This document shows positions 3,372 through 56,063 of a stretch of 64,000 nt of DNA, piece after piece. Location: assembly GCF_004379255.2 (NCBI RefSeq), contig NC_056052.1:7812001-7876000 (forward strand), in the 5' to 3' direction. How positions within the stretch are numbered: position 1 is the first letter of the stretch; every line of letters begins with the position of its first letter. A program made the translations under genes and the position numbers. The notes under the pieces are model-generated. The model was not told the DNA's origin. It saw only the letters and a program-made list of their open reading frames with translations, and made no database searches. The DNA comes from Salvia splendens. Lineage: Eukaryota; Streptophyta; Magnoliopsida; Lamiales; Lamiaceae.

Positions 3372-4530
3372 TTATCTAAAATATGAATGTTTTTTTCCAT
3401 GAATTTCAAAGTTTAAAAAAATAACTACAAACTTTGCGAGGATGCCAATTTTATAAAAATAATTTCATATGTCGGATAATTCTGTGATTATTGCACTAAT
3501 AAGTTAATAACTCTATATTTTTATATAGTCGCATGATGCATGAGCCTGCGCATTGACCTAATTTAATTCATTAATACCTAAAATCATTTTATAAAATAAA
3601 ATTACAGATAAATAAAAATGATTCCTTAATGAATGAAGTTGACAAATCCACTATCAACGGCCCCGCACATGCCCCACCCTCAACCGGTGGTCGCCAATCT
3701 CCGCCTCCCTCTGCGCCATCCCATGGCGGAACACCGTTGAGCACTCCGGCAGCTCCCCGAGACCCGCAAACAGATCCTCTTCTTCCTCCTCCCCTCTCAA
3801 GCCAAAAATCATCGCCATTTCTCTCTCCGTATTCCCTCTCTCCTCCATCAAATCCGGAGCCTCGAGAATCCTATCAGATCTCGACTCGAAATCAGTCAAC
3901 CAACCAAATTCACCGCCATAAATCAAATTCTCTCCAAATCGATTCTCTAAATTGAACTCGTGAAACTGATTATGACCTAGATCCATCGATTTTTCGTTTT
4001 CCCCCAATACGTCCTCGTCTTCTTCAGAAATTGAAATTGGCGCATCGCGGTGGTGGATGTTGCGAGAGGAAGGCGGCGGATGGGTGTGGTCGCAGGAGTA
4101 GGTGACGATTACCATGTTTGGATCGGCGCTGCTTCTTCTCTCCACCTGTTTTCTCGCAGGGCAGCCTTTTAAGCTGCTGCATCTATAATAACCCCTGAAA
4201 AATTAATTGAATTGGTTTAATTAATTTCAATTAAACAAGTTGATTAATTAATTTAAGGTAGTAGTATAAGTAATGAGCTGGGATATGGGGAGCCTTTGAT
4301 CGGTTTTTGGCCGTATTTCCGCCACGCCCACGAATCCGAGGGCGGAGCGCTGGATGTCCTTGATCGGGACCGACATCACTCGTTTCCTTATAGCCGTGCG
4401 TCTGTGTATAAATAAATCGAGAGATTTATGTAAAATTTAAGTTTTTCGGGATTTTGAACTCTTTTTGCATGGAAACTGATAGAAATCCATGGGTTCCATC
4501 CTAAAACCAATTGGACCCGCTCTGATACCA

Positions 4531-4701
4531 TGATAAAAGGAAGAGATTTTCTTCATTCACTCTTATGATTTACATTCTAATTTACACCCCTTTAAATAGG
4601 TTCAACAATAGATAAACATGGTAAGGATCCTTTCCAATTAATTTCCTAATCACATGGTAATTCTCCTTAAATACATTATTCTAATTGATTTCTTTCCAAC
4701 A
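4531..4701 (-). repeat. 3'-side LTR-like block of the Copia element (type B, 171 bp)
   Basis: On the minus strand it starts TGTTGGAAAGAAATC, directly after the polypurine tract, and ends CTTTTATCA, directly before a second primer-binding site. Apart from the first six bases and the last few it does not match the 5' LTR. Position and ends are those of an LTR, yet the copy beside the 5' end is of another type. Confidence 0.75.
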
Positions 4702-4712
4702 CTCCCCTCAAG

Positions 4713-7700
4713 TTAAGTAATGAGATCACTCATTCTTAACTTGCTCAATACTTCGCGGAATCTTCTTGAATCCACAGCCTTAGTCAGAATATCGGCCAGT
4801 AGGTCTTCAGATCTCACAATCGGGAGCTCTACTATCTTGGCTTCTATGTTGTCTTTAATGAAGTGCCTATCCACCTCGACATGCTTTGTCCGATCGTGCT
4901 GGACAGGGTTTTCAGATATACTGATTGCCGCTTTGTTATCACAGAACAACTTACACGACTTTTGTGACTTTAGGCTTAGCTCTGTCATTAGCTTCTTCAG
5001 CCATAAAATCTCAGTCAGACCACTCTTGATTCCTCGAAACTCAGCTTCTGCACTAGACAGGGCAACCACCTTTTGCTTCTTGCTCCGCCACGTAACAAGA
5101 TTCCGTCCAACAAAGGTGAAGTACCCTGCGGTCGACTTTCTGTCATTTGGGTTTCCTGCCCAGTCTGCATCTGTGAAACCATGGATCTCCAAGTGTCCAT
5201 GATTTTCGAACATCACTCCATGTCCTGGCGTCCCCTTTAGGTATCTTACAATCCTAAGAGCCGCCTCCCAGTGAGCTGCTTGGGGTGCGTGCATGTGCAA
5301 TATCGGGTCTGGTGTGAGACAAGTAGATTAATTTCCCAACTAGACGCTGGTACCTTGTGCGATGAGTAGACTCCGCTCCTTCAATTATCTGCAAACCGTG
5401 ATTCTGTGCCATAGGAGTATCAGCTGGTTTGCAGTCTAGCATCCCAGTTTCTGCCAGCAGATCAAGTACATATTTTCGCTGGCTGATAAAGATTCCCTTC
5501 TTCGACCTTAGTACTTCAATTCCCAGAAAGTATTTAAGTAATCCAAGGTCCTTCATTTGGAATTCTGCAAAGAGATTATTCTTCAACTGCTTGATCTCAT
5601 CCTCATCATCACCTGTGATGATCATATCATCTACATAAATGATCAGACACGTAATTTTTTCTTCTCTCCTTTTTAGGAACAGAGTATGGTCGGAGTTGCT
5701 TTGCTTGTATCCATACTTCTTCATTACCTCCGTGAACCTCCCAAACCATGCCCTAGGGGATTGTTTCAGCCCATACAGTGTCTTCTAAAGTTTGCAAACC
5801 TTTCCTCCTTCAAACTGGCCAGAGAAACCAGGTGGTGCCTCTATGTAGATTGGTTTGGACAGCTCCCCATGTAAAAAGGCATTTGTCACATCAAATTGGT
5901 GTAGTGGCCATTCCCTGTTCGCCGCTATGGAGAATAGTACTCGAATAGTACTCATCCTTGCCACCGGGGAGAAAGTCTCAGCATAGTCGACTCCATATGT
6001 CTGAGTATATCCCTTAGCTACCAATCTTGCCTTATACCTTTCGATCGATCCATCTGGTCTTCTCTTAATAGTAAAGACCCATCTGGTCTTCTCTTAATAG
6101 TAAAGACCCATCTGCATCCTACAGTCTTGACCCCATCTGGTTTCAAACATACTTCCCAAGTCTTGTTTTTGATCAGGGCCCTCATCTCCACCAACATTGC
6201 CTCCCTCCAGTGGGCAACTTTCATAGCTTCTTCTGCCGTTCTAGGGAGCTCTTCTTCCTCATAAAGAGCAGCTTCAAATGCCCTGGCCATTTCACTCAAG
6301 TTTGCTTTAGCCAGATTTGCCATAGGGTACCGACTCCTTGAGTTGGTTCTTTCTGGACTGTATCGTTTAGGAGGCACCCCACGGGTGCTTCTAGGAGGTA
6401 AGATATACCGCCCAGTATCACCATCAATTGCTGCATTTTCTCCTTCCTCTGCATCAGGTTGGTTAGAACCAATAACTGTATTTTCTGAGCTAGTTCGGGA
6501 ATTACCTCAGATATCACTGGAGGAGGATCTGGTTCAGGCAATGGCGACTAAGGAGGCTCCACAGTGGACGTGATCTGCTCGGCGATGACACTAGCTTGCT
6601 CTGTTGGCTCTACCTCGGAGTTGCCTAATTGTGGCACATCCCAATGAAGGGGTCGAACACTCTCCCCCTGGCTTGGAACACTCTCCCCCTGACCCCGAAT
6701 TTGGGTGTGATAGAAATACTCACTTTCTAAGAAGTTACAGTTCATGGTTGTAATAATCTTCCTAGAAGTTGGATCATAACACCTATATCCTTTTTGATTC
6801 AATCCATAACCCATAAAAACACATTTAATGGCACATGCAGAGAATTTACTTCTTTCATGCTTGGGAACATGGACATAAACAGAACAACCAAAGATTTTGA
6901 AAGGAATAGTCAGGGGTTCAGGAATATTTGTTGAGGCTGAAAGAATTTGCAGAGGAGTCTTCATACCTAAAATCTTTGTAGGTAGACGATTAATTAAATA
7001 AACTGCAGTGGCTACAGCTTCAGGCCAAAGAAATTTTGGAACATTTGAGTCAAAAAACAAAGCTCGAGTCATTTCCAAAATCAGTCTATTTTTCCGTTCT
7101 GCTACTCCATTTTGTCCAGGAGTATAGGGACAAGTCGTTTGATGAACCAGTCCCCTGCTCCTAAAAAAAGATGTCATTTCCTTATTAACAAATTCCCTAC
7201 CATTATCAGACCTAAGAATTTTAATAGATGTTTGAAATTGAGTCTGTATCATAGTAAAAAAAAATGGTAAATTTTTCGAAAACCTCATTTTTATTTTTTA
7301 AAAAATATACCCATGTTAATCTAGTGCAATCATCCACAAAAATTAAAAAATATTTTAAACCATGATCACCAGTAATGGGCGCTGGGCCCCACACATCAGC
7401 ATGTACTAAGGAGAAAATATCCTTAACCCGAGTATCACTAGATTTAAAGGATTGTCTATGGCTTTTGGCCAAAACACATGACTCACAAGTAATATTCTTA
7501 AACTTAGAAAACTTAGGAAACAGAATTTTGAAATAACCCGAAGATGGATGCCCCATTCTACGGTGCCACAACCAAGCTTCTCTTTCAGCAGATCCGTGAG
7601 CAAGCATCGCGGTGCCACCTTGTTGAGTAATCTCGTCCACATAGTAGAGGCCTTGACGCTCAGTGCCACGCCCAATTATCCTCCTCGTCCGGATATCCTG

Positions 7701-8069
7701 TAATACACAAAAATTTGGGTGCATCAATAGAGTACAGTTTAGCTCTTTAGTAACATGACTAATGGACATGAGTTTATGAGACAGTTTGGGCACATAAAGG
7801 CAGTTGGAGAGTTTTAAGGTGGGAGAAATTTCAATGGTTCCACTCCCACTAACAGCAGTCAATTCCCCATCAGCAGTTTGTATCGAACTCTTTGTAGCAT
7901 CAGTAAATGCAGAAAAATCATTTTTATCATAAAACATTGTATCTGTGGCTCCACAATCAAATATCCATCCATTCTCCTTAGGATCATTTTTACTTTGGGC
8001 CATACATGCTATAGGGATTTTTTCCAACGGTGCAAAACTATTTGGGCTTAAAAAGGAATTTTTAGGCAA
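4713..8069 (-). pseudogene. Copia pol (protease, integrase, RT, RNase H), frameshifted
   Basis: Domains follow Copia order. The protease motif reads WIFDCGATD, with Cys where D[ST]G is usual. The pre-integrase segment has LWHRRMGHP and CESCVLAKSH; the integrase catalytic motifs are HADVWGP, RSDNGREF and NGVAERKNR. The RT has [21 protein letters not shown] and IIYVDDMIITG. RNase H has TDADWAGNPNDRKSTAGY, SSAEAEFRG and CDNKAAISI. Breaks visible: a slip in the T/A run near 7260, a stop at 6548, an exact 29-bp tandem duplication at 6050-6107, a stop at 5785, and a small deletion near 5300 that removes the segment before MHAPQ. The protein ends beside the polypurine tract. Confidence 0.85.
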
Positions 8070-8084
8070 TATAGGGGTAGTTTT

Positions 8085-9389
8085 TCAGATTTTTTGAGTG
8101 TGAGGACCTTTTTGCACATGATTTATACTACAGGGACTGGGCTTATAATTTTTTCTAGAAGGGGGTCTCTTTTTAAACATTTCCAAACTTGAGGGGGCAT
8201 GCAATAAAATTGATTTGTTAATTTGGGGATTAGGGTTGTCACTCCCTAATCCGCCGTTACCTCCGACAGAACTCCCCCTCCGTTCGGCAAACACGGCCTC
8301 TCCGATTCGCTGGTCCGGTTCGCCTCGCCTGCCGCCACCACCGCCCTGTTGTTGGGTGGTCTCGCCTATTCTCCCTCGGGCGTTGGCAGCTCCTCGGTTG
8401 CCCGCCGTTTCTTGGAACAATCCACCTCCTTCTTCTACTCTGATTGTGAGTCGTGCTCTCGCCTTTTGGCTTTCATCCCACCATTCTGGGAACCCGACGA
8501 GGAGAAAACAATTTTCCTTGGTGTGTCTCGGTCGTTGACAGTGGGTGCACCACATTCTGGATTTGTCAGGTTTGAACCCTCGGCGGTTTGGTGGTAGCGC
8601 GGCGGCGCTCGGTGGTTGGGTTTGGTGCTGTGGTGTTTGATTTCGGGCTGCGAATCCCAACCCTATTCCGCCCGATGATGAGCCATCGTTGGTTGCACCG
8701 GTTGGGAGATCCGAATTTGTTGCCGGCGCATTGATCTTGAGCCGGGTAGCTTCTCGTTTCACCCATCTGTATGCGGCCTCGGCTGAGGGCAGTGGGCATT
8801 CTTTTAGAATGTCCCGTCGAATCCCATCATATCGTTCGTTCAGTCCCGTTAGGAACTTGAACAAACGCTTCGTCCCTCCATACTTTCTGAACTGGCCGAC
8901 GCCCTTATCACAACAATCGATTGGGCATTTTTGGCATCGATCAATCTCGATCCAGAGCCCATGTAGATGGCGCCAGTACGTCTCGAGCCCCTGTTCTCCC
9001 TGGATCATTTTTCCCGCTTTTTCCTCTAGGTCGTAGAGCAGGTACGGATCCGAGACGCTCTCGAAGGTGACAGATAGGCTCTCCCAAAGAGCCTATGCAG
9101 TGTGGTGGTGAGCAAAATCCACGACAATATCCGTATCGATATTGTCGAGGATCCATGAAAAAACAATCATGTCGGATTCCTCCCATTCGGTGTAGCCTTT
9201 TTCCCCTGGTTCCGGTGGTGTTGGCACACCCGTGATATGCTGGTTTGCCCGTCTGCCGACAATCGCGATTCTCATTAGTTTCTTCCAAAGTGGGTAGTTT
9301 GTTCCTTTGAGTCTGACTGCTAGAGTAACGTTTTTACTCATCTTTAACCTCGAGTCGTCGAGGTTTGGTTTTTCTTCGTCGTCTGACAT
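8085..9389 (-). pseudogene. Copia gag (nucleocapsid region), one internal stop
   Basis: The frame starts MSDDEEKPNLDD and has a UBN2-like gag core (LWKKLMRIAI, TYWRHLHGLW, FLTGLNERYDGIR). A zinc knuckle CTHCQRPRHTKENC fits C-X2-C-X4-H-X4-C and is followed by GFPEWW. An in-frame TAG near 9093 separates the first 98 codons from the rest. A TGA near 8085 separates gag from the protease frame that follows in the same register. Gag would form the virus-like particle. Glycine-rich, low-complexity sequence fills the C-terminal third. Confidence 0.8.
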
Positions 9390-9476
9390 TCTGTGATGTA
9401 GGTTGAAGCCGTTTGGCCGAGATTTTGGTATTTTAGGCTATGATGAATTTTTTTCTGAGCCTTTGCTCTGATACCA

Positions 9477-9617
9477 TGATAGAAATCCATGGGTTCCATC
9501 CTAAAACCAATTGGTTATAGGAGGAGGGGCCCATGAAACTTATATACTAGTTTCAGTTTTATCTTGACACCGATGTGAGACAGTTATATGTTATATTTTT
9601 AGTTTCAATTGCCAACA
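9477..9617 (-). repeat. 5' LTR of the Copia element (type A, 141 bp)
   Basis: On the minus strand it starts TGTTGGCAATTG and ends TTTCTATCA, directly against the primer-binding site. It contains CACATCGG and a TATA-like AGTATATAAG. At 141 bp it is short for a Copia LTR and resembles those of TRIM elements. Confidence 0.8.
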
Positions 9618-9721
9618 GAAACATACCGTAGCTTAGAGGCGATCTTGAGATGTTTAGCCATGGATGAGTTGATCTTCAATTCTGTAGCAAAATGGCTGCT
9701 GCTGAATCTGTTATTGTTCAT

Positions 9722-10391
9722 ACTGATGAGTACTGATCATGGAATGTGATCTCAATCGGAATGTATATGGTGATACAATGGACGTGCAAGAAAATGTTGA
9801 AGTAATCCAAAGTTGAATTTTTACAATATGAAAGCTACCTATTAGTATACATTGATATTTACGAGATATTCTTATTTTTATTTTATTCTTTTTTAATATG
9901 TATTTTATCCGTAATGTCTCATTACATGTGACATATTTTTTATGGGCACAAATTTTTAGATAGTGGTATTTAATAGTTAAATAAAGAGAGAAAAAGTAAA
10001 ATAAGAGAAAAATAGAGTGATATTTTTTGTTATTAACAAGATGACCTAAAAATGAATATACTATGTCACTTAATGTAACGGAAGAAGTACTATAACGAGT
10101 ACGGTAAATGGTGATAGAGTATTTATTACGGCGTATATGCTCCAATTGTTGGATTAAATGCTAGTAGTATAATTATAATCAATAATTTTTAATACACTTA
10201 AAATTACATGTTTCATTATTTGTTGATTCATATTTTATTTATTTTTTACTATAATTTCGTGTTTTGGTTTATTTTGTAGCACTAAGCTAGAGTTGACATT
10301 TAATTCTAGTTAATATTATTAATTGGTGAATAATTAGTTATAGGAATTAGTAAATTAATAATTAAATGTTGCCTGAATGCATTCTTATATA
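9722..10391. other. Region upstream of the WRKY pseudogene, no gene seen
   Basis: AT-rich sequence. From about 9907 to 10089 there is a degraded Stowaway-like fragment (inner motif GTCTCATTACATGTGACAT and end AACGGAAGAAGTAC). No coding signal is seen. Confidence 0.4.
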
Positions 10392-38450: not shown

Positions 38451-38672
38451 ATGAAACGATACAACAACAACGGCAAGGCCGTGTGGGGCTCAGGCCGTCA
38501 AGATTCTTACCCACCGCACAGATTCGGTGGACGTGTTCCGATGATGGGGGGCCGCCGTGATCAGGGGGGATTTCAGCGGCCGACTATGGAGAATAGTGAG
38601 TTTGAGACGCGGGTGGGGGACGATTTGCCCCCCGGAGGACCCGGTTGGCATGAAACTAGACCGTATCCTTGA
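38451..38672 (+). pseudogene. N-terminal gag segment of the chromovirus, in a different frame from the polyprotein
   Basis: The first ATG after the primer-binding site opens a 73-codon frame (MKRYNNNGKAVWGSGR ... FETRVGDDLPP) that ends at a stop. A shift at the six-C run 38628-38633 would lead from this frame into the polyprotein frame at PPEDPVGMKLDRI. So either one C was gained in this copy, or translation starts downstream. Confidence 0.5.
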
Positions 38673-41600
38673 ACGATTCGACAAATTAGATATATGGAAA
38701 GAGGAGACCGACGTCCGGTTAGACAATATGGAGCCGCCGCCGTCGGGGTCTGCGGACAGGGACGAGTGGGAGGACGATGGAAATCGTTGGCGCAATTCGG
38801 GGGACAGAGGCCCGCGAGTGCAGACCTGCCCATCCAGAAATCGGGGCGGGGGGATGGATTATCGTGGTCGTGGCGATAACAGAAGTCGTACGGGATTTGG
38901 AGGAGACCATTCTTCCGGGTGTGCCCCGTCTGGGGAGCGCCCGCCATCATGCTGGGACCCACCCCAGCGGTTCCAGGCTGCGGGCTACGACAAGCCAGAA
39001 CGAGTAAAAATGCAGCCCCCCCGCTTCGACGGGACCGATGTAGCAACGTGGATTTCGAAGGTCCAATTCTACTTCAACCATCTGATGATGCCCGAGGCCC
39101 AGCGATTGCACTACGCGGTCATGTTGTTTGACCAACCGGCGGCAGAATGGGTGTTCAATTACTGCTCAAATAATGAATTCGTGACATGGCAAGAATTCCT
39201 GGAAGACGTACGTCACCGTTTTGATCGTCAAAGCTTCAAAAATTTTTACGGCTTGATAGCAAAGTTAACACAAACTGGGACGGTACTGAAATACCATGAC
39301 ACGTTCGAAAAATATATGAATCGGGTGAAAGGGGTGCCGGAGTCGGATCTGTTTACATTGTTCATCGCGGGCCTTAAACCCGACATGCAGGAGCGGCTGC
39401 AGCTGCACAGACCGTCGTCCCTAGCAGCGGCTATGGCTCTAGCATTGGAGCTGGCGGACACGCAGGCTGACCGTTGGCACCAGCCGGCCCAACCGGCGGC
39501 AAACCGTCGGCCCTGGCAGAACAGGGACAGAAGGGGTCCGACGGGAGCCACCCCCGGGCAGCAGCCACCCCAGGCTTCGGGTGCGGCGATTCAACCCCAG
39601 GGAGGGTCGGTCCGACCGCCTGTTCAGATGAGATCCCCGATGGTTCGGGTTTCGTCGGCGGAGAAAGCGGAAAGGGCTCGGATGGGCCTGTGCTATTACT
39701 GTCCCGACAAATGGGTAATAGGCCACGTATGCAAGCAACGTTTATTGTGCTATGCGGAGGAAGAGGATGTTAATGTGGCTTCAGACGACGAGTTTCTAAC
39801 GGAGGAGAATGTAGCGACAGACATCTCCCATATCCAAGCCATGAAAGGGGGACAGCGGTCTCGACACCTAAAGGTAACGGGTATGATTCACGAGAGGGAA
39901 GTTAGCATCCTCATTGATACCGGCAGTGACAGGGATTTCCTACACCCGAGGATTGCAGAGGTCCTCCACTTGCCTTTATCGCCGATTCATCCCTTTCGGG
40001 TAGTGGTCGGAAATGGCGAGGCCCTACTTTGCACGCATGTCTCGCGACAGACGAAGTTGGAGGTACAAGGGACAGTTTTCGTGATAGACTTACATATCCT
40101 GCCTATCCATAGGCCGGACGTCATTCTAGGAATGGATTGGTTGGAATCGTTGGGGAAAGTAACGACTGATTTTGTGGGAAAGACACTGGAATTTACTCAA
40201 GGAGATAAGCCGGTCATCTTGAAAGGAATTCTGCCCCATCCCAGACGTCTTAATCTACACTCGCTGTTGGCACTGTCATCTTCTCGCGTGGATTATGATC
40301 TTTTTGAGGTTGTGCTGATGGAGCCGGAGGATACTGCCCCGACCACCGTCGCGGCGACAGAATTTCCAGCCAACCTGCCGCCGGGGGTGACGACCGCGTT
40401 GGACCGCTTTCGGCAGGTTTTCGGCCTTCCGACGGGCATTCCCCCGGCTAGACCATTCGACCATCGCGTACACCTGTTGCCTGGGGCGAACCCCGTGAAT
40501 GTGAGGCCATACCGCTATCCGTATTTCCAGAAGAACGAGATAGAGCGGCAGGTCAAGGACATGTTGGAGCAAGGTATTATTCAGAGGAGCAGTAGTCCAT
40601 TTTCGTCGCCGGTTCTCCTGATCCGCAAGAAAGACGGAACCTTCCGGTTCTGCATTGATTACAGAGCATTAAACAACGCTACTGTGCCCGACCATTTCCC
40701 CATCCCAACAGCAGACGAGCTCTTTGACGAGTTGGGCAAGGGGCGGGTTTTCACTAAATTGGATTTGCGATCGGGATACCATCAAATACGGATGCACGAC
40801 AAGGACATATTCAAGACGGCCTTTCGCACTCACGACGGCCACTATGAATTCTTGGTCATGCCGTTTGGATTAACAAACGCCCCGTCCACATTTCAGGCAG
40901 CTATGAATGCGATTTTTCAACCAATGCTGCGAAAGTTCGTCATTGTTTTCTTCGATGACATATTGGTGTACAGTCCGTCGGCGGAATCGCATGTAGAACA
41001 TTTATCGGCGGTCCTGACTGTGCTGCAAGATAACAACTTCTATGTAAAGCTTACTAAATGCTCATTTTGCAGTACGACTGTGGAATACTTAGGCCACCTA
41101 ATCAGTGAAGGGCTCCTTAAAGCCGATCCTGCCAAAATCGAGTCGATGACCGCGTGGCCGCAGCCAAAGACCGTAAAACAGCTCCGCGGTTTCCTGGGCC
41201 TGACGGGTTACTATCGTCGGTTTGTGGCAGGTTACGCAGTGATTGCGGCCCCATTGACAGAATTGCTTAAGAAGGACGCTTTTGATTGGACCGACGCAGC
41301 GGGTACAAGCTTCCAGAACCTCAAGCACGCGATGACCACGGCTCCGGTCCTACACCTCCCGGATTTCAACCTTCCGTTTTGCATAGAGACGGATGCATCG
41401 GACCTCGGCATTGGGGCAGTGCTCTTACAGAAAAATAACCCTATTGCTTACTTTAGCAAGAAACTAGGACCCCGTCGTCGGGCGGCGTCAACCTACCATA
41501 AGGAACTATACGCGATAGTGGAGGCGGTCCAGAAATGGCGACAATATCTGTTGGGCCGCGCGTTTATCATAAGAAGTGACCAAAAGAGTTTGAAGGAATT

Positions 41601-43461
41601 GCTCCAACAAGTGGTCCAGACCCCCGATCAACAGCTGTATGTCTGGAAGCTTATGGGTTATAAATTCACGATAGAATACAAGAAGGGGTGTTCGAACAAA
41701 GTAGCGGATGCCTTGTCGCGTCGCGAGGAATCATCGCTTGTTCCGGGTGAGGGCAACGCGCCCACGACAGGGAGTTCCGAGGCCGACGCCGATGCCGAGG
41801 CCGCGTGCGACGGCGCATTACTGAGGGCAGCGGTTCAGCCCGTGCCCAACCTGATCGATCTGCTGCGCAGTGAAACAGCATCTTCCCCTGAAATGCGCGA
41901 ACTCACGGCGAGGATCAAAGGGGGAGAGGCGCCGCCTCACCTGACGTGGGTGGATGGTCTTGTTTATCATCGGCGCAGGATTTTTGTGGGGTCACGCTCG
42001 TCGGCGAGAACGCCGATTCTTACCGAATACAACAGTTCACCCGCAGCGGGTCATCCGGGCTTTGAGAGGACTCTGCGGCGAGTCGGAGGGGATTTTTACT
42101 GGCCCAACATGAAGAAGGAAGTAAAGAGATTTGTGGAAGCTTGCGTCATCTGTCAGACCACGAAATACTCCACGCAAAAGCCAGCTGGGCTATTGCAGCC
42201 ATTACCGATTCCATCACAGGTATGGGAGGACGTATCCATGGACTTCATCACGGGCCTTCCACCATCGCGGGGGTACACGGTTGTTATGGTTGTGGTCGAT
42301 AGGTTATCTAAATACGCGCATTTCGCGCCTCTCCCCACCAAGTTCGATGCCATGAGGGTGGCACACTTGTTTGTTAATACTGTAGTGCGGCATCACGGGT
42401 TTCCCAAAACCTTAGTCTCGGATCGTGACTCGGTGTTCTTGAATAAGGTGTGGGAAGAAATTATGCGACTTAGTGGGACTAAACTGAACTTCTCAACTGC
42501 TTATCACCCACAGTCGGATGGCCAAACGGAGGTCAGAAATAGGGGTCTCGAGCAGTATTTGCGGGCATTCACGGCCGATCGCCCTTCACGATGGACCAAT
42601 TTCCTTCCGTGGGCGGAGCTGGCCCTAAACTGTTTCCACCATGCGGCGCTAGGCTTGTCCCCGTTTAAGGCTTTGTATGGCCGTGACCCACCAAGCCTCG
42701 TATTCACGGCGCCCTCAACCGGGACGCCCCCATCCGTGGCGGAGATGATCACGCAGCGGAGCGAGCTGCTGGTTGAGCTCAGACGGAACTTGGAGCGTGC
42801 ACAGCAGCGAATGAGGGACTCAGCCAATAAGCATCGCCGCCATGTGGAGTACGCGGTCGGCGATAGGGTGCTTTTGAAATTGCAGCCCTACAGACAACAT
42901 TCGGTCGCTCGGCCCTTATCCGCGAAATTGGCGCGTCGTTACTATGGACCTTTTGATGTATTGGAACGAATTGGGCAGGTTGCATATCGGTTGAAGCTAC
43001 CGGATGGGAGTCGGATACATAACGTGTTTCATGTGAGCCTGTTACGACCTTTTGTGCCCGGCGATAGCGATGGAGTGGGCGGGGAATTGCCCAGCGATTT
43101 TTTTGGAAATAGGCCGCTTGTTTACCCGGTTAGAGTGTTGGAGAAAAGGGTACTTTGGCTGGAGGGACAGCCACGTGACCACGTGCTCATCCGGTGGTCC
43201 GACGGGTCGGAGTCACCAACATGGGAGCCCTGGGAGGTGGTCGAGCGCAGATTCCCGAACGTGCTCCTTGAGGACAAGGATGTTGCTATCGAGGGGGGAG
43301 TTGATACGATACCACAACCAGGGGAGCCGGCACAGCCACCGGAGACGCGAGCCGCAGCAACGGGAGCAGGCCAGCTGACGGAGCAGGACTCCATTGCGAC
43401 GTCAAAGCCGAAGAGGAATACGAGGCCTCCACAACGGTTGGGCGATTTTGTTCCAAAGTAG
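38557..43461 (+). CDS. Chromovirus Gag-Pol polyprotein (open frame of 1634 codons)
   Basis: Domains in order with approximate residues: gag 150-300 (FDGTDVATWISKVQFYF, WQEFLEDVRHRFD); zinc knuckle near 378 (CYYCPDKWVIGHVC, spacing C-X2-C-X7-H-X-C); protease near 452 (LIDTGSDRDF); RT 640-830 (FCIDYRALNNATVPDHFPIP, VFFDDILVYS); RNase H 940-1060 (ETDASDLGIGAVLLQ); integrase 1150-1370 with HPGFERTL ... CVICQ and catalytic SMDFITG, VSDRDSVF and DGQTEVRNR; chromodomain-like 1520-1570 (VLIRWSDGSESPTWEPWE). The last 53 residues are encoded by the 3' LTR. Chromodomains steer integration towards marked heterochromatin. There are no internal stops. The true start is uncertain: MKLDRILERF near residue 32, or an upstream ATG at 38451 in another frame. 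Confidence 0.92.
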   Translation: MIRGDFSGRLWRIVSLRRGWGTICPPEDPVGMKLDRILERFDKLDIWKEETDVRLDNMEPPPSGSADRDEWEDDGNRWRNSGDRGPRVQTCPSRNRGGGMDYRGRGDNRSRTGFGGDHSSGCAPSGERPPSCWDPPQRFQAAGYDKPERVKMQPPRFDGTDVATWISKVQFYFNHLMMPEAQRLHYAVMLFDQPAAEWVFNYCSNNEFVTWQEFLEDVRHRFDRQSFKNFYGLIAKLTQTGTVLKYHDTFEKYMNRVKGVPESDLFTLFIAGLKPDMQERLQLHRPSSLAAAMALALELADTQADRWHQPAQPAANRRPWQNRDRRGPTGATPGQQPPQASGAAIQPQGGSVRPPVQMRSPMVRVSSAEKAERARMGLCYYCPDKWVIGHVCKQRLLCYAEEEDVNVASDDEFLTEENVATDISHIQAMKGGQRSRHLKVTGMIHEREVSILIDTGSDRDFLHPRIAEVLHLPLSPIHPFRVVVGNGEALLCTHVSRQTKLEVQGTVFVIDLHILPIHRPDVILGMDWLESLGKVTTDFVGKTLEFTQGDKPVILKGILPHPRRLNLHSLLALSSSRVDYDLFEVVLMEPEDTAPTTVAATEFPANLPPGVTTALDRFRQVFGLPTGIPPARPFDHRVHLLPGANPVNVRPYRYPYFQKNEIERQVKDMLEQGIIQRSSSPFSSPVLLIRKKDGTFRFCIDYRALNNATVPDHFPIPTADELFDELGKGRVFTKLDLRSGYHQIRMHDKDIFKTAFRTHDGHYEFLVMPFGLTNAPSTFQAAMNAIFQPMLRKFVIVFFDDILVYSPSAESHVEHLSAVLTVLQDNNFYVKLTKCSFCSTTVEYLGHLISEGLLKADPAKIESMTAWPQPKTVKQLRGFLGLTGYYRRFVAGYAVIAAPLTELLKKDAFDWTDAAGTSFQNLKHAMTTAPVLHLPDFNLPFCIETDASDLGIGAVLLQKNNPIAYFSKKLGPRRRAASTYHKELYAIVEAVQKWRQYLLGRAFIIRSDQKSLKELLQQVVQTPDQQLYVWKLMGYKFTIEYKKGCSNKVADALSRREESSLVPGEGNAPTTGSSEADADAEAACDGALLRAAVQPVPNLIDLLRSETASSPEMRELTARIKGGEAPPHLTWVDGLVYHRRRIFVGSRSSARTPILTEYNSSPAAGHPGFERTLRRVGGDFYWPNMKKEVKRFVEACVICQTTKYSTQKPAGLLQPLPIPSQVWEDVSMDFITGLPPSRGYTVVMVVVDRLSKYAHFAPLPTKFDAMRVAHLFVNTVVRHHGFPKTLVSDRDSVFLNKVWEEIMRLSGTKLNFSTAYHPQSDGQTEVRNRGLEQYLRAFTADRPSRWTNFLPWAELALNCFHHAALGLSPFKALYGRDPPSLVFTAPSTGTPPSVAEMITQRSELLVELRRNLERAQQRMRDSANKHRRHVEYAVGDRVLLKLQPYRQHSVARPLSAKLARRYYGPFDVLERIGQVAYRLKLPDGSRIHNVFHVSLLRPFVPGDSDGVGGELPSDFFGNRPLVYPVRVLEKRVLWLEGQPRDHVLIRWSDGSESPTWEPWEVVERRFPNVLLEDKDVAIEGGVDTIPQPGEPAQPPETRAAATGAGQLTEQDSIATSKPKRNTRPPQRLGDFVPK

Positions 43462-54800: not shown

Positions 54801-56063
54801 TTCTTCCTAGATATTTTCTCCTTGCAGAGAAAATGAGGTGTAAGAACCAATTTTAACCCCTGTGCCAGTTCCTCTCAAACTTCTATTGAATACTCAAAGG
54901 CCACTGAAGATAGGCTTAATTTCAAGAGCTAGACTTAACAGTCTTAGCCAAACCTTACAAGCTTCATACAACCCAAATGACCAAATCATCTCAACTGAAG
55001 CAAAATTAAGCTGAATCAATAGGCTTACCTGCTTAGGTTCCCCATTCTTTCCCCCAATGGTGATCGAAATTATGTGACCAGTGACTGTACCATTCCCATC
55101 CATCACAGGAGCAGACATCTCCTGTATAATGATCAATGCTCGAATTAGAAAACACATTACTCCACTGCTATTAAAGATCAGCTATGAATGCAGTTTCAAC
55201 AGATATGCGCAGTTTCTACAGATATGCACATTTCGCAAGAATACACACTCTAGCTGAGCAAAGATCAAGGGCATAAATCAAGAAAAATTATGAAATCCAT
55301 AATTGACAACCAACACACAAATTAGCCAGAATAAATTTCCAATTAGCAAGAAACATTGGAACTTAAGCATCGATCTAACTCTCCAAGGCCATAGAAACTT
55401 TCTAAAATTCTCGTAGCTCGTCTTAAAATTGAAAACCTAGGCAAATCATAGATACAATATTAGAAATGAGTCACTCACCCCTCTAAAAGGCGAGGGTTAT
55501 CCACACTTATATAGAAGAGATAAGATCGGGACAAGATATTAGAATTTTAACACGCCCCCTCACGTGTGGGCCGGAATGACACATCGGACTTCCATCACGT
55601 GGGTAGGCAAGAGAAGAGATAAAGAAAATAAACTCCATCATCGAGTTGGGTCCGCTCTGATACCATATTAGAAATGGGTCATTCACCCCTTAAAAGGCCT
55701 CATAAGGGGGAGGGTTATCCACACTTATATAGAAGAGATAAGATCATCACCAAGCCGATGTGGGACAAGATATTAGAATTTTAACACACAAGACCGATAC
55801 TACAGCTCCTGCACAACGATTACAAGAAACAATAACCTCAGGAACCAAAACTATAAAAATCAGTTAAATTGAAGGCCGGAATTCCACTGGTTGAGAAAAA
55901 AATAAACCGAATACAGAAAATGCAGATCTGCAATATCCGGAATTGTGACGATGGGAAACAGAAGATCTAAAACGGTGCGATATTAGGAATCAACTAACAA
56001 TATGAGCACAATCGAAAAGCGAAATCGAAAGCACAAAAACAAAATTACCTTATCGTCGGCCAT
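51831..56063 (-). CDS. BIN2-type GSK3/shaggy-like kinase (subgroup II), complete
   Basis: Twelve exons, all with GT-AG introns and in frame: 56063-56049, 55121-55029, 54755-54696, 54605-54333, 54247-54173, 54091-54035, 53889-53749, 53650-53600, 53525-53430, 52646-52563, 52385-52284 and 51932-51831; 382 aa. [16 protein letters not shown] and [13 protein letters not shown] place it with BIN2 and its two close paralogues. The Gly loop is GTGSFGIVF (47-55), the ATP Lys K69, the catalytic loop HRDLKPQN (163-170), DFG 184-186, the activation Tyr Y200, and the TREE motif 261-264 with E263. BIN2 kinases phosphorylate BZR-type factors and so repress brassinosteroid responses in nucleus and cytosol. 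All catalytic residues are present. Oddities are G248 where the family has Asp in NAVDQLVE, and R193 for Lys. Exon 1 encodes only five residues; intron 1 contains a TRIM. Confidence 0.93.
55458..55786 (-). mobile_element. TRIM (miniature LTR retrotransposon) in intron 1 of the kinase gene
   Basis: Two short LTRs (minus strand: 55786-55666, 121 bp, and 55552-55458, 95 bp with an internal deletion) begin TGTTAAAATTCTAATATC. Between them lie a primer-binding site TGGTATCAGAGC (55665-55654) and a polypurine-like GTGAGGGGGCG. The flanks are CACAA and TACAA, a duplication with one mismatch. There is no coding sequence. It has the same orientation as the gene. Confidence 0.8.

What the first reader, a model, noticed from the sequence alone, without database searches (positions are those of the whole stretch)
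4472..9622. Chimeric Copia element: two different LTRs inside one target-site duplication
The element is bounded by a perfect GAAAC duplication, so it integrated as one molecule. Yet its 5' LTR (141 bp, type A) and its 3'-side LTR (171 bp, type B) are unrelated. After the type B LTR comes a second primer-binding site, the bases GGGTCC, and then the last 38 bp of type A. The two types meet at CCAATTGG, which is also present in the full type A LTR. A solo-LTR insertion cannot explain this, because the rest of type A is missing beside the polypurine tract. Inference: minus-strand cDNA started on a type A RNA (TRIM-like, short LTR), jumped at CCAATTGG to the leader of a type B Copia RNA, ran through its primer site and LTR, and then continued normally. 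If right, it is a frozen template switch in which a small element's ends capture a full Copia interior.
Basis: partly seen in the sequence, partly recalled or inferred. Interest (0 to 1): 0.75.

Follow-up and report, generated by a model that had tools for sequence, protein, structure and literature searches.

The report
Miniature retrotransposon fused to Copia element
In what is very probably scarlet sage, a tiny protein-less jumping gene and a full-size one seem to have been copied into DNA as one molecule, joined at the short site where copying normally starts, which hints at whose machinery the tiny one borrows.

Summary
The element is real: a perfect 5-bp duplication encloses a 141-bp LTR A, a Copia body with its own 171-bp LTR B, a second primer-binding site (PBS), and 38 bp of LTR A. 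Genome copies show that A is a TRIM (LTRs 140-142 bp, internal region 212-220 bp) and B an ordinary 5.1-kb Copia. So the molecule was LTR A-PBS-Copia B-LTR B-PBS-TRIM-LTR A, joined at the PBS; most of the TRIM unit was then lost (1-bp overlap). A jump at CCAATTGG is contradicted. Two more joins support the PBS route: on C6 a third Copia LTR is followed by PBS and an intact TRIM unit; on C8 LTR A is joined to the PBS and leader of another Copia. Each was read at one end only. Best explanation: TRIM cDNA, ending in PBS complement, annealed to a co-packaged Copia RNA or cDNA during reverse transcription. DNA-level recombination remains a rival.

The parts
4472..4476 (.). target-site duplication copy GAAAC (sense GTTTC)
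4477..4514 (-). last 38 bp of TRIM LTR A (3' end of the element); starts near the predicted RNA start (TATA at LTR position 72, +32)
   Evidence: the TSS is inferred from the TATA position only
4514..4518 (-). remnant of the TRIM leader, GGGTC; base 4514 is shared with the LTR A remnant (1-bp overlap at the deletion junction)
   Evidence: 7 of 7 LTR A-PBS sites in fetched TRIM copies continue GGGTC
4519..4530 (-). second primer-binding site TGGTATCAGAGC (junction Copia/TRIM)
4531..4701 (-). LTR B, 171 bp, complete: native 3' LTR of the Copia body
4702..4714 (-). polypurine tract AACTTGAGGGGAG of Copia B
   Evidence: same place, with small variants, in B copies
4715..9464 (-). Copia B leader and gag-pol remains (stops and frameshifts); with PBS1 and LTR B, 98.6-98.8% identical (aligned bases) and collinear to three full B copies
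9465..9476 (-). first primer-binding site TGGTATCAGAGC (junction LTR A / Copia leader AAAGGCTC)
9477..9617 (-). 5' LTR A, 141 bp, LTR of a TRIM family
9618..9622 (.). target-site duplication copy GAAAC

Best explanation
A TRIM RNA and a Copia B RNA were reverse transcribed in the same particle and joined through the PBS that both carry. In the simplest version, TRIM minus-strand cDNA ran normally to its end, the complement of the PBS. It annealed to the PBS of the Copia RNA in place of a tRNA primer. It then copied U5-R of B, transferred to B's own 3' R, and copied LTR B, pol, gag and leader to the PBS. The TRIM's plus-strand strong-stop DNA transferred to that PBS and gave LTR A at the other end. 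The product, LTR A-PBS-Copia B-LTR B-PBS-TRIM-LTR A, was integrated as one molecule, giving the GAAAC duplication. Reciprocal plus-strand strong-stop transfer at the same PBS gives the same product and cannot be told apart. Most of the TRIM unit (from 5 bp after its PBS to LTR A position about 104, roughly 300 bp) was lost during or after the event. Shown: the parts, their family identity, the join at the PBS, and two further joins of the same kind, each seen at one end. Inferred: co-packaging, the strand, and the order and timing of the deletion.
For: (1) A is a TRIM: LTR 140-142 bp, internal 212-220 bp with PBS and PPT in the 5 LTR pairs seen. (2) The body from PBS1 to the end of LTR B (4,946 bp) is one uninterrupted Copia B, with 68, 64 and 59 mismatches in 4,914 aligned bases against three full-length B copies. 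(3) Leaders are exchanged exactly at the PBS. Of the 12 PBS-bearing LTR B copies in the list, all fetched, 10 continue AAAGGCTC and 2 a variant; 7 of 7 LTR A-PBS sites in TRIM copies continue GGGTC; the window element has LTR A->AAAGG and LTR B->GGGTC. In one search, 1 of 44 matches (the window itself) spans LTR B-PBS-GGGTC; only 40 of 1,240 candidates were scored there. (4) The inner LTR is pure B and the outer remains are pure A, as a PBS join predicts and a join in R does not. (5) Recurrence: C6 L036 reads Copia RNase H - PPT - a third LTR (236-469, 234 bp) - PBS - whole TRIM internal (94%) - full LTR A (97%). C8 reads full LTR A (94%) - PBS TGGCATCAGAGC - AAAGGCTC leader and gag start of a different relative of B; the exact pattern had 2 matches in the genome, its reversed control 0. 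(6) A and B share TATCATGGTATCAGAGC (17 bp) in B copies whose PBS has T (3 of 12), and strand transfer normally acts at the PBS.
Against: Two aberrant steps are needed (join and deletion). The C6 and C8 loci were each read at one end only; no TSD was checked there, and C8 could be a Copia that owns LTR A at both ends. The C6 join was met by chance, not in a planned search. The homeologous locus did not give an empty site, so a resident TRIM that later received the Copia DNA is not excluded. The deletion ends at the predicted RNA start of LTR A, which the late-deletion version leaves as a coincidence. B's PBS has C at base 4 in 9 of 12 copies, so annealing to TRIM cDNA would often carry a mismatch.
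Confidence: 0.63

Rival explanations
1. DNA-level recombination: a TRIM was already at this site, and a Copia B one-LTR circle or unintegrated cDNA recombined into it at the 12-17 bp PBS homology without integrase; part of the TRIM was lost then or later.
For: Gives the same structure with the TSD belonging to the TRIM; integrase-independent insertion at PBS and PPT homology is reported for Tf1 (passage in PMC12786077); tandem B (C9) and tandem TRIM (L035) copies exist.
Against: Needs recombination at 12-17 bp of homology in chromatin, at three loci with three different Copia families; at C8 the PBS has base C (B type) right after LTR A, leaving only TATCATGG (8 bp) for a crossover, if the TRIM parent had T as in the 7 TRIM sites seen.
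Confidence: 0.2
2. A Copia family with LTR A at both ends exists; this element is such a Copia, or a recombinant of it with B, whose 3' LTR was patched by repair.
For: C8 has LTR A - PBS - Copia leader and its 3' end was not seen.
Against: The exact LTR A-PBS-AAAGG pattern occurs at 2 places in 806 Mb, one being the window (versions with mismatches could not be searched, unanswered); the body is B at 98.6-98.8%; a patch does not explain the whole TRIM unit beside another Copia LTR at C6.
Confidence: 0.08
3. One reading: minus-strand jump at CCAATTGG from TRIM R-U5 into the leader of B.
For: The 38-bp LTR A remnant begins at the predicted RNA 5' end, as a minus-strand strong-stop DNA would.
Against: B's leader is AAAGGCTC, not GGGTCCAATTGG (0 of 12); GGGTC is TRIM leader; the model would give the same chimera at both ends.
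Confidence: 0.03
4. Two-RNA complex made at the R region by first-strand transfer (Sabot and Schulman model).
For: Single TSD, three-LTR layout, matching outer LTRs (PMC1950507, read whole).
Against: A switch at R would give chimeric U3/R-U5 LTRs; here the inner LTR is B along all 171 bp and the 5' LTR is A along all 141 bp.
Confidence: 0.03
5. Assembly artefact joining reads of two repeats.
For: Repeated sequences on both sides.
Against: Perfect TSD, junctions at exact biological boundaries, comparable joins at C6 and C8; the overlaps at the joins are 12-17 bp (PBS) and 1 bp (deletion).
Confidence: 0.03

Closest known systems
Template-switching complex LTR retrotransposons (Sabot and Schulman 2007, PMC1950507)
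   Same: one TSD, two elements sharing an inner LTR, matching outer LTRs, two-RNA origin
   Different: theirs are relatives joined at R; here unrelated families (TRIM and Copia) join at the PBS and the LTRs are pure
Tandemly arrayed TRIMs (Gao et al. 2016, PMC4717578; Cassandra arrays, PMC7215508; passages read)
   Same: LTR-internal-LTR-internal-LTR layout; a TRIM tandem also occurs in this genome (L035)
   Different: units here belong to two families, so the join point, hidden in a homotandem, is visible
Putative autonomous partners of TRIMs (Gao et al. 2016, PMC4717578; FRetro64/FRetro129, PMC3281118; passages read)
   Same: a retrotransposon proposed to serve a TRIM
   Different: those were proposed from sequence similarity; LTR A and LTR B are unrelated here, and the link is a shared product
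ONSEN recombinants (Sanchez et al. 2017, PMC5668417; passages read)
   Same: recombination between co-packaged retrotransposon RNAs
   Different: within one family, LTR recombination mostly at the first template switch in R; a tandem with a foreign LTR did not appear in the passages I read

Membership tests
TRIM (type A) | short LTRs, short non-coding internal region, PBS and PPT | tested here: met
   LTR 140-142 bp; internal 212-220 bp starting with PBS and ending in a purine-rich tract in L030 (first pair), L033, L035, L037, L039
TRIM (type A) | 5-bp TSD | tested here: met
   4 of 8 loci where it could be judged match: L030 (across its array) GTTTC, L033 GTTCT, solo LTRs L040 GATTC and L041 GTATC; no match at L031, L034, L037, L039; L032, L035, L036, L038 not judged
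Ty1-Copia (type B) | integrase before reverse transcriptase, LTR pair, 5-bp TSD | tested here: met
   Pfam order in the window; three full copies 5112-5113 bp with TSDs AAACT, ATCAG, ATTTC
Template-switching complex (PMC1950507) | flanking TSD and matching outer LTRs | tested here: met
   GAAAC both sides; 38 of 38 bp of the 3' remnant match the 5' LTR
Template-switching complex (PMC1950507) | two complete core sequences | tested here: not met
   the TRIM core is reduced to the PBS and 5 bp in the window
Template-switching complex (PMC1950507) | LTRs chimeric at R | tested here: not met
   inner LTR B and 5' LTR A unmixed
Single integration of a joined cDNA | empty site in relatives, no TRIM-only allele | tested here: inconclusive
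   the homeolog on C7 is broken in exon 2 by other DNA before the site is reached

The most novel reading that the evidence does not exclude
A cDNA end that carries the PBS complement can replace the tRNA as primer on a second packaged RNA. This PBS relay is a general route to LTR-retrotransposon tandems, and TRIM A has been caught in it with three different Copia families, so its helper is not one partner but a whole Copia lineage sharing the PBS and LTR ends.
Probability: 0.35. Interest if true: 0.78.

Novelty: new variant of a known kind. Interest (0 to 1): 0.62.

Why it matters
TRIMs encode nothing, and for most of them no helper element is known: for 278 of 289 subfamilies Gao et al. 2016 found no related coding element (PMC4717578, passages). 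A joined TRIM-Copia molecule with one TSD would be physical evidence that a given Copia's reverse transcription and integration acted on the TRIM. Because the two parents are unrelated, it also shows where such tandems are joined, which homotandems cannot. This turns TRIM partnership and tandem formation into things that can be counted in any genome by searching for LTR-X / PBS / leader-Y mismatches.

Tried and rejected
Rejected: solo-LTR insertion (no TSD at the LTR B edges). Rejected: join at R. Considered but not pursued: filler-DNA repair from a B 5' end; it predicts B leader after PBS2, which is not seen.

Led nowhere: viral and prokaryote collections (no relative). The sample of 21 x 10 kb of C1 gave no A or B copy, but two distant relatives at about 70% identity; 1 of 500 shuffles reached the alignment score of LTR B with the LTR of L019, 21 of 500 that with L001, while LTR A was no better than shuffles with either, the first hint that B is native. 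The homeolog test was inconclusive. Not obtained because calls did not complete: the 5' end of the C6 join, the LTR A-PBS-AAAGG search with up to 3 mismatches, the LTR B-PBS-GGG pattern, a genome count of LTR A, the partner LTR of the C8 element, the right flank of the window element.
Full report
The element is present as listed. It lies on the minus strand, between two GAAAC copies at 4472 and 9618. In sense order: LTR A (141 bp), PBS TGGTATCAGAGC, Copia gag-pol, polypurine tract, LTR B (171 bp), a second PBS, GGGTC, and the last 38 bp of LTR A. LTR A and B are unrelated beyond their end motifs. The coding part has Copia domain order and is broken by stops and frameshifts.

The host is very probably Salvia splendens. 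Contig C6 of the genome is 38,537,683 bp, the contig length listed for a S. splendens protein found with the RNase H part (P0237). The genome held has 805.9 Mb in 1,162 contigs and the window is C21:7812001-7876000. That the species is tetraploid is recalled, not tested.

Type B is an ordinary Copia. Three full copies (L042-L044) are 5,112-5,113 bp with 5-bp TSDs AAACT, ATCAG and ATTTC. The chimera from PBS1 to the end of LTR B (4,946 bp) aligns to each without a break, with 68, 64 and 59 mismatches in 4,914 aligned bases, spread along the whole length, with two gap clusters of 29 and 26 columns common to the three comparisons. The list (44 matches; 40 of 1,240 candidates scored, so a lower bound) holds 12 LTR B copies that run into a PBS, besides the window. 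I fetched all 12 (L023-L026, L028, L045-L051): 10 continue AAAGGCTC and 2 (L024, L050) a variant with 1-2 changes; none has GGGTC. One of the 12 (L046) is the middle LTR of a Copia tandem.

Type A is a TRIM. The 15 hits to the 38-bp part lie in 12 stretches, all fetched (L030-L041). Eleven held at least one full LTR A of 140-142 bp (L032 was partial). Five held LTR pairs around a TRIM internal region of 212-220 bp (L030 first pair, L033, L035, L037, L039). The 7 LTR A-PBS sites in them and in L038 continue GGGTC[GA]CCGA; the only other LTR A-PBS sites fetched, the window's and C8's, continue AAAGG. L035 is a TRIM tandem. TSDs matched at 4 of 8 loci where they could be judged (L030, L033, L040, L041; not L031, L034, L037, L039).

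So the two leaders are exchanged at the PBS in the window element: LTR A is followed by B's leader, LTR B by the TRIM's. The TRIM unit then breaks off after GGGTC and resumes at LTR A position 104 or 105, with one base of overlap. About 200 bp of TRIM internal region and 103 bp of LTR are gone. The original molecule was therefore LTR A-PBS-Copia B-LTR B-PBS-TRIM-LTR A.

Two further joins were met. On C6, L036 holds the end of a Copia RNase H (81% amino-acid identity to B over 74 residues), a polypurine tract, a third LTR of 234 bp, the PBS, a whole TRIM internal region (94%) and a full LTR A (97%). This is the undeleted right half that the model predicts. It was noticed only, among loci fetched for another reason, so it was not a planned test. 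On C8, the pattern LTR A end-PBS-AAAGG, found without mismatch at two places in the genome, the other being the window, with none for its reversed control, belongs to a full LTR A (94%) followed by PBS TGGCATCAGAGC and the leader and gag start of a different relative of B. This is a left half. The far end of each was not read, so I do not claim that they are complete joined elements.

Mechanism. A join in R, as in Sabot and Schulman (PMC1950507, read whole), would mix U3 of one with R-U5 of the other. A join at the PBS gives pure LTRs in the order seen, with everything else canonical. TRIM minus-strand DNA ends in the PBS complement and can prime on a Copia RNA's PBS; alternatively, plus-strand strong-stop DNAs cross over at the PBS. 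[quoted passage not shown] I cannot separate the two versions.

Unexplained: the deletion stops at LTR A position 104, where a TATA box at 72 predicts the RNA start (inferred). If not chance, the loss happened during reverse transcription, with strong-stop DNA as a template.

Main rival: recombination of Copia DNA into a resident TRIM. The homeolog on C7 could not decide. A Copia-Copia tandem also exists (C9, second unit cut after about 155 bp).

Literature: passages of PMC4717578, PMC7215508, PMC3281118, PMC11899658, PMC5668417 and PMC12786077 were read. In the listings I saw no title or abstract start reporting a TRIM joined to an unrelated Copia at the PBS; that is not proof of absence.

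Noticed in passing
window 3654-4410 and about 9629-9740, minus strand: The element sits in intron 1 of a WRKY gene (Pfam WRKY on 3654-4202), same orientation, a few bases inside the inferred 5' splice site (..AAGCTACG|GTATGTTTC). Exon 2 (WAWRKYGQKPIKGSPYPR) seems frameshifted; exon borders are my reading. A partial 85% paralog lies just upstream at C21:7811188.
   Followed up: partly
window about 55450-55790, minus strand: Another TRIM-like element: PBS TGGTATCAGAGC followed by GGACCCAACTCG, PPT-like GTGAGGGGGCG, repeats of 48 and 37 bp; its leader resembles that of TRIM A.
   Followed up: partly
L030 (C14:5580300-5582100): Diverged TRIM A array (81-84%): the third LTR is preceded by repeats starting GTTTCCTCTATTTGC, as found in the 3' flank, and a PPT remnant; the outer TSD GTTTC matches that repeat.
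   Followed up: no
L038 (C2:35508900-35510700): Scrambled cluster of several partial LTR A copies.
   Followed up: no
L046 (C9:14287050-14288600): Copia B tandem: middle LTR with PPT before and PBS-leader after; the second unit stops after about 155 bp.
   Followed up: partly
window 38545-43461: Gypsy polyprotein ORF of 1,638 aa without a stop.
   Followed up: no
L056 (C7:10953150-10954150): The homeologous WRKY exon 2 is interrupted by unrelated DNA rich in ACCGGAACCG-type repeats.
   Followed up: no
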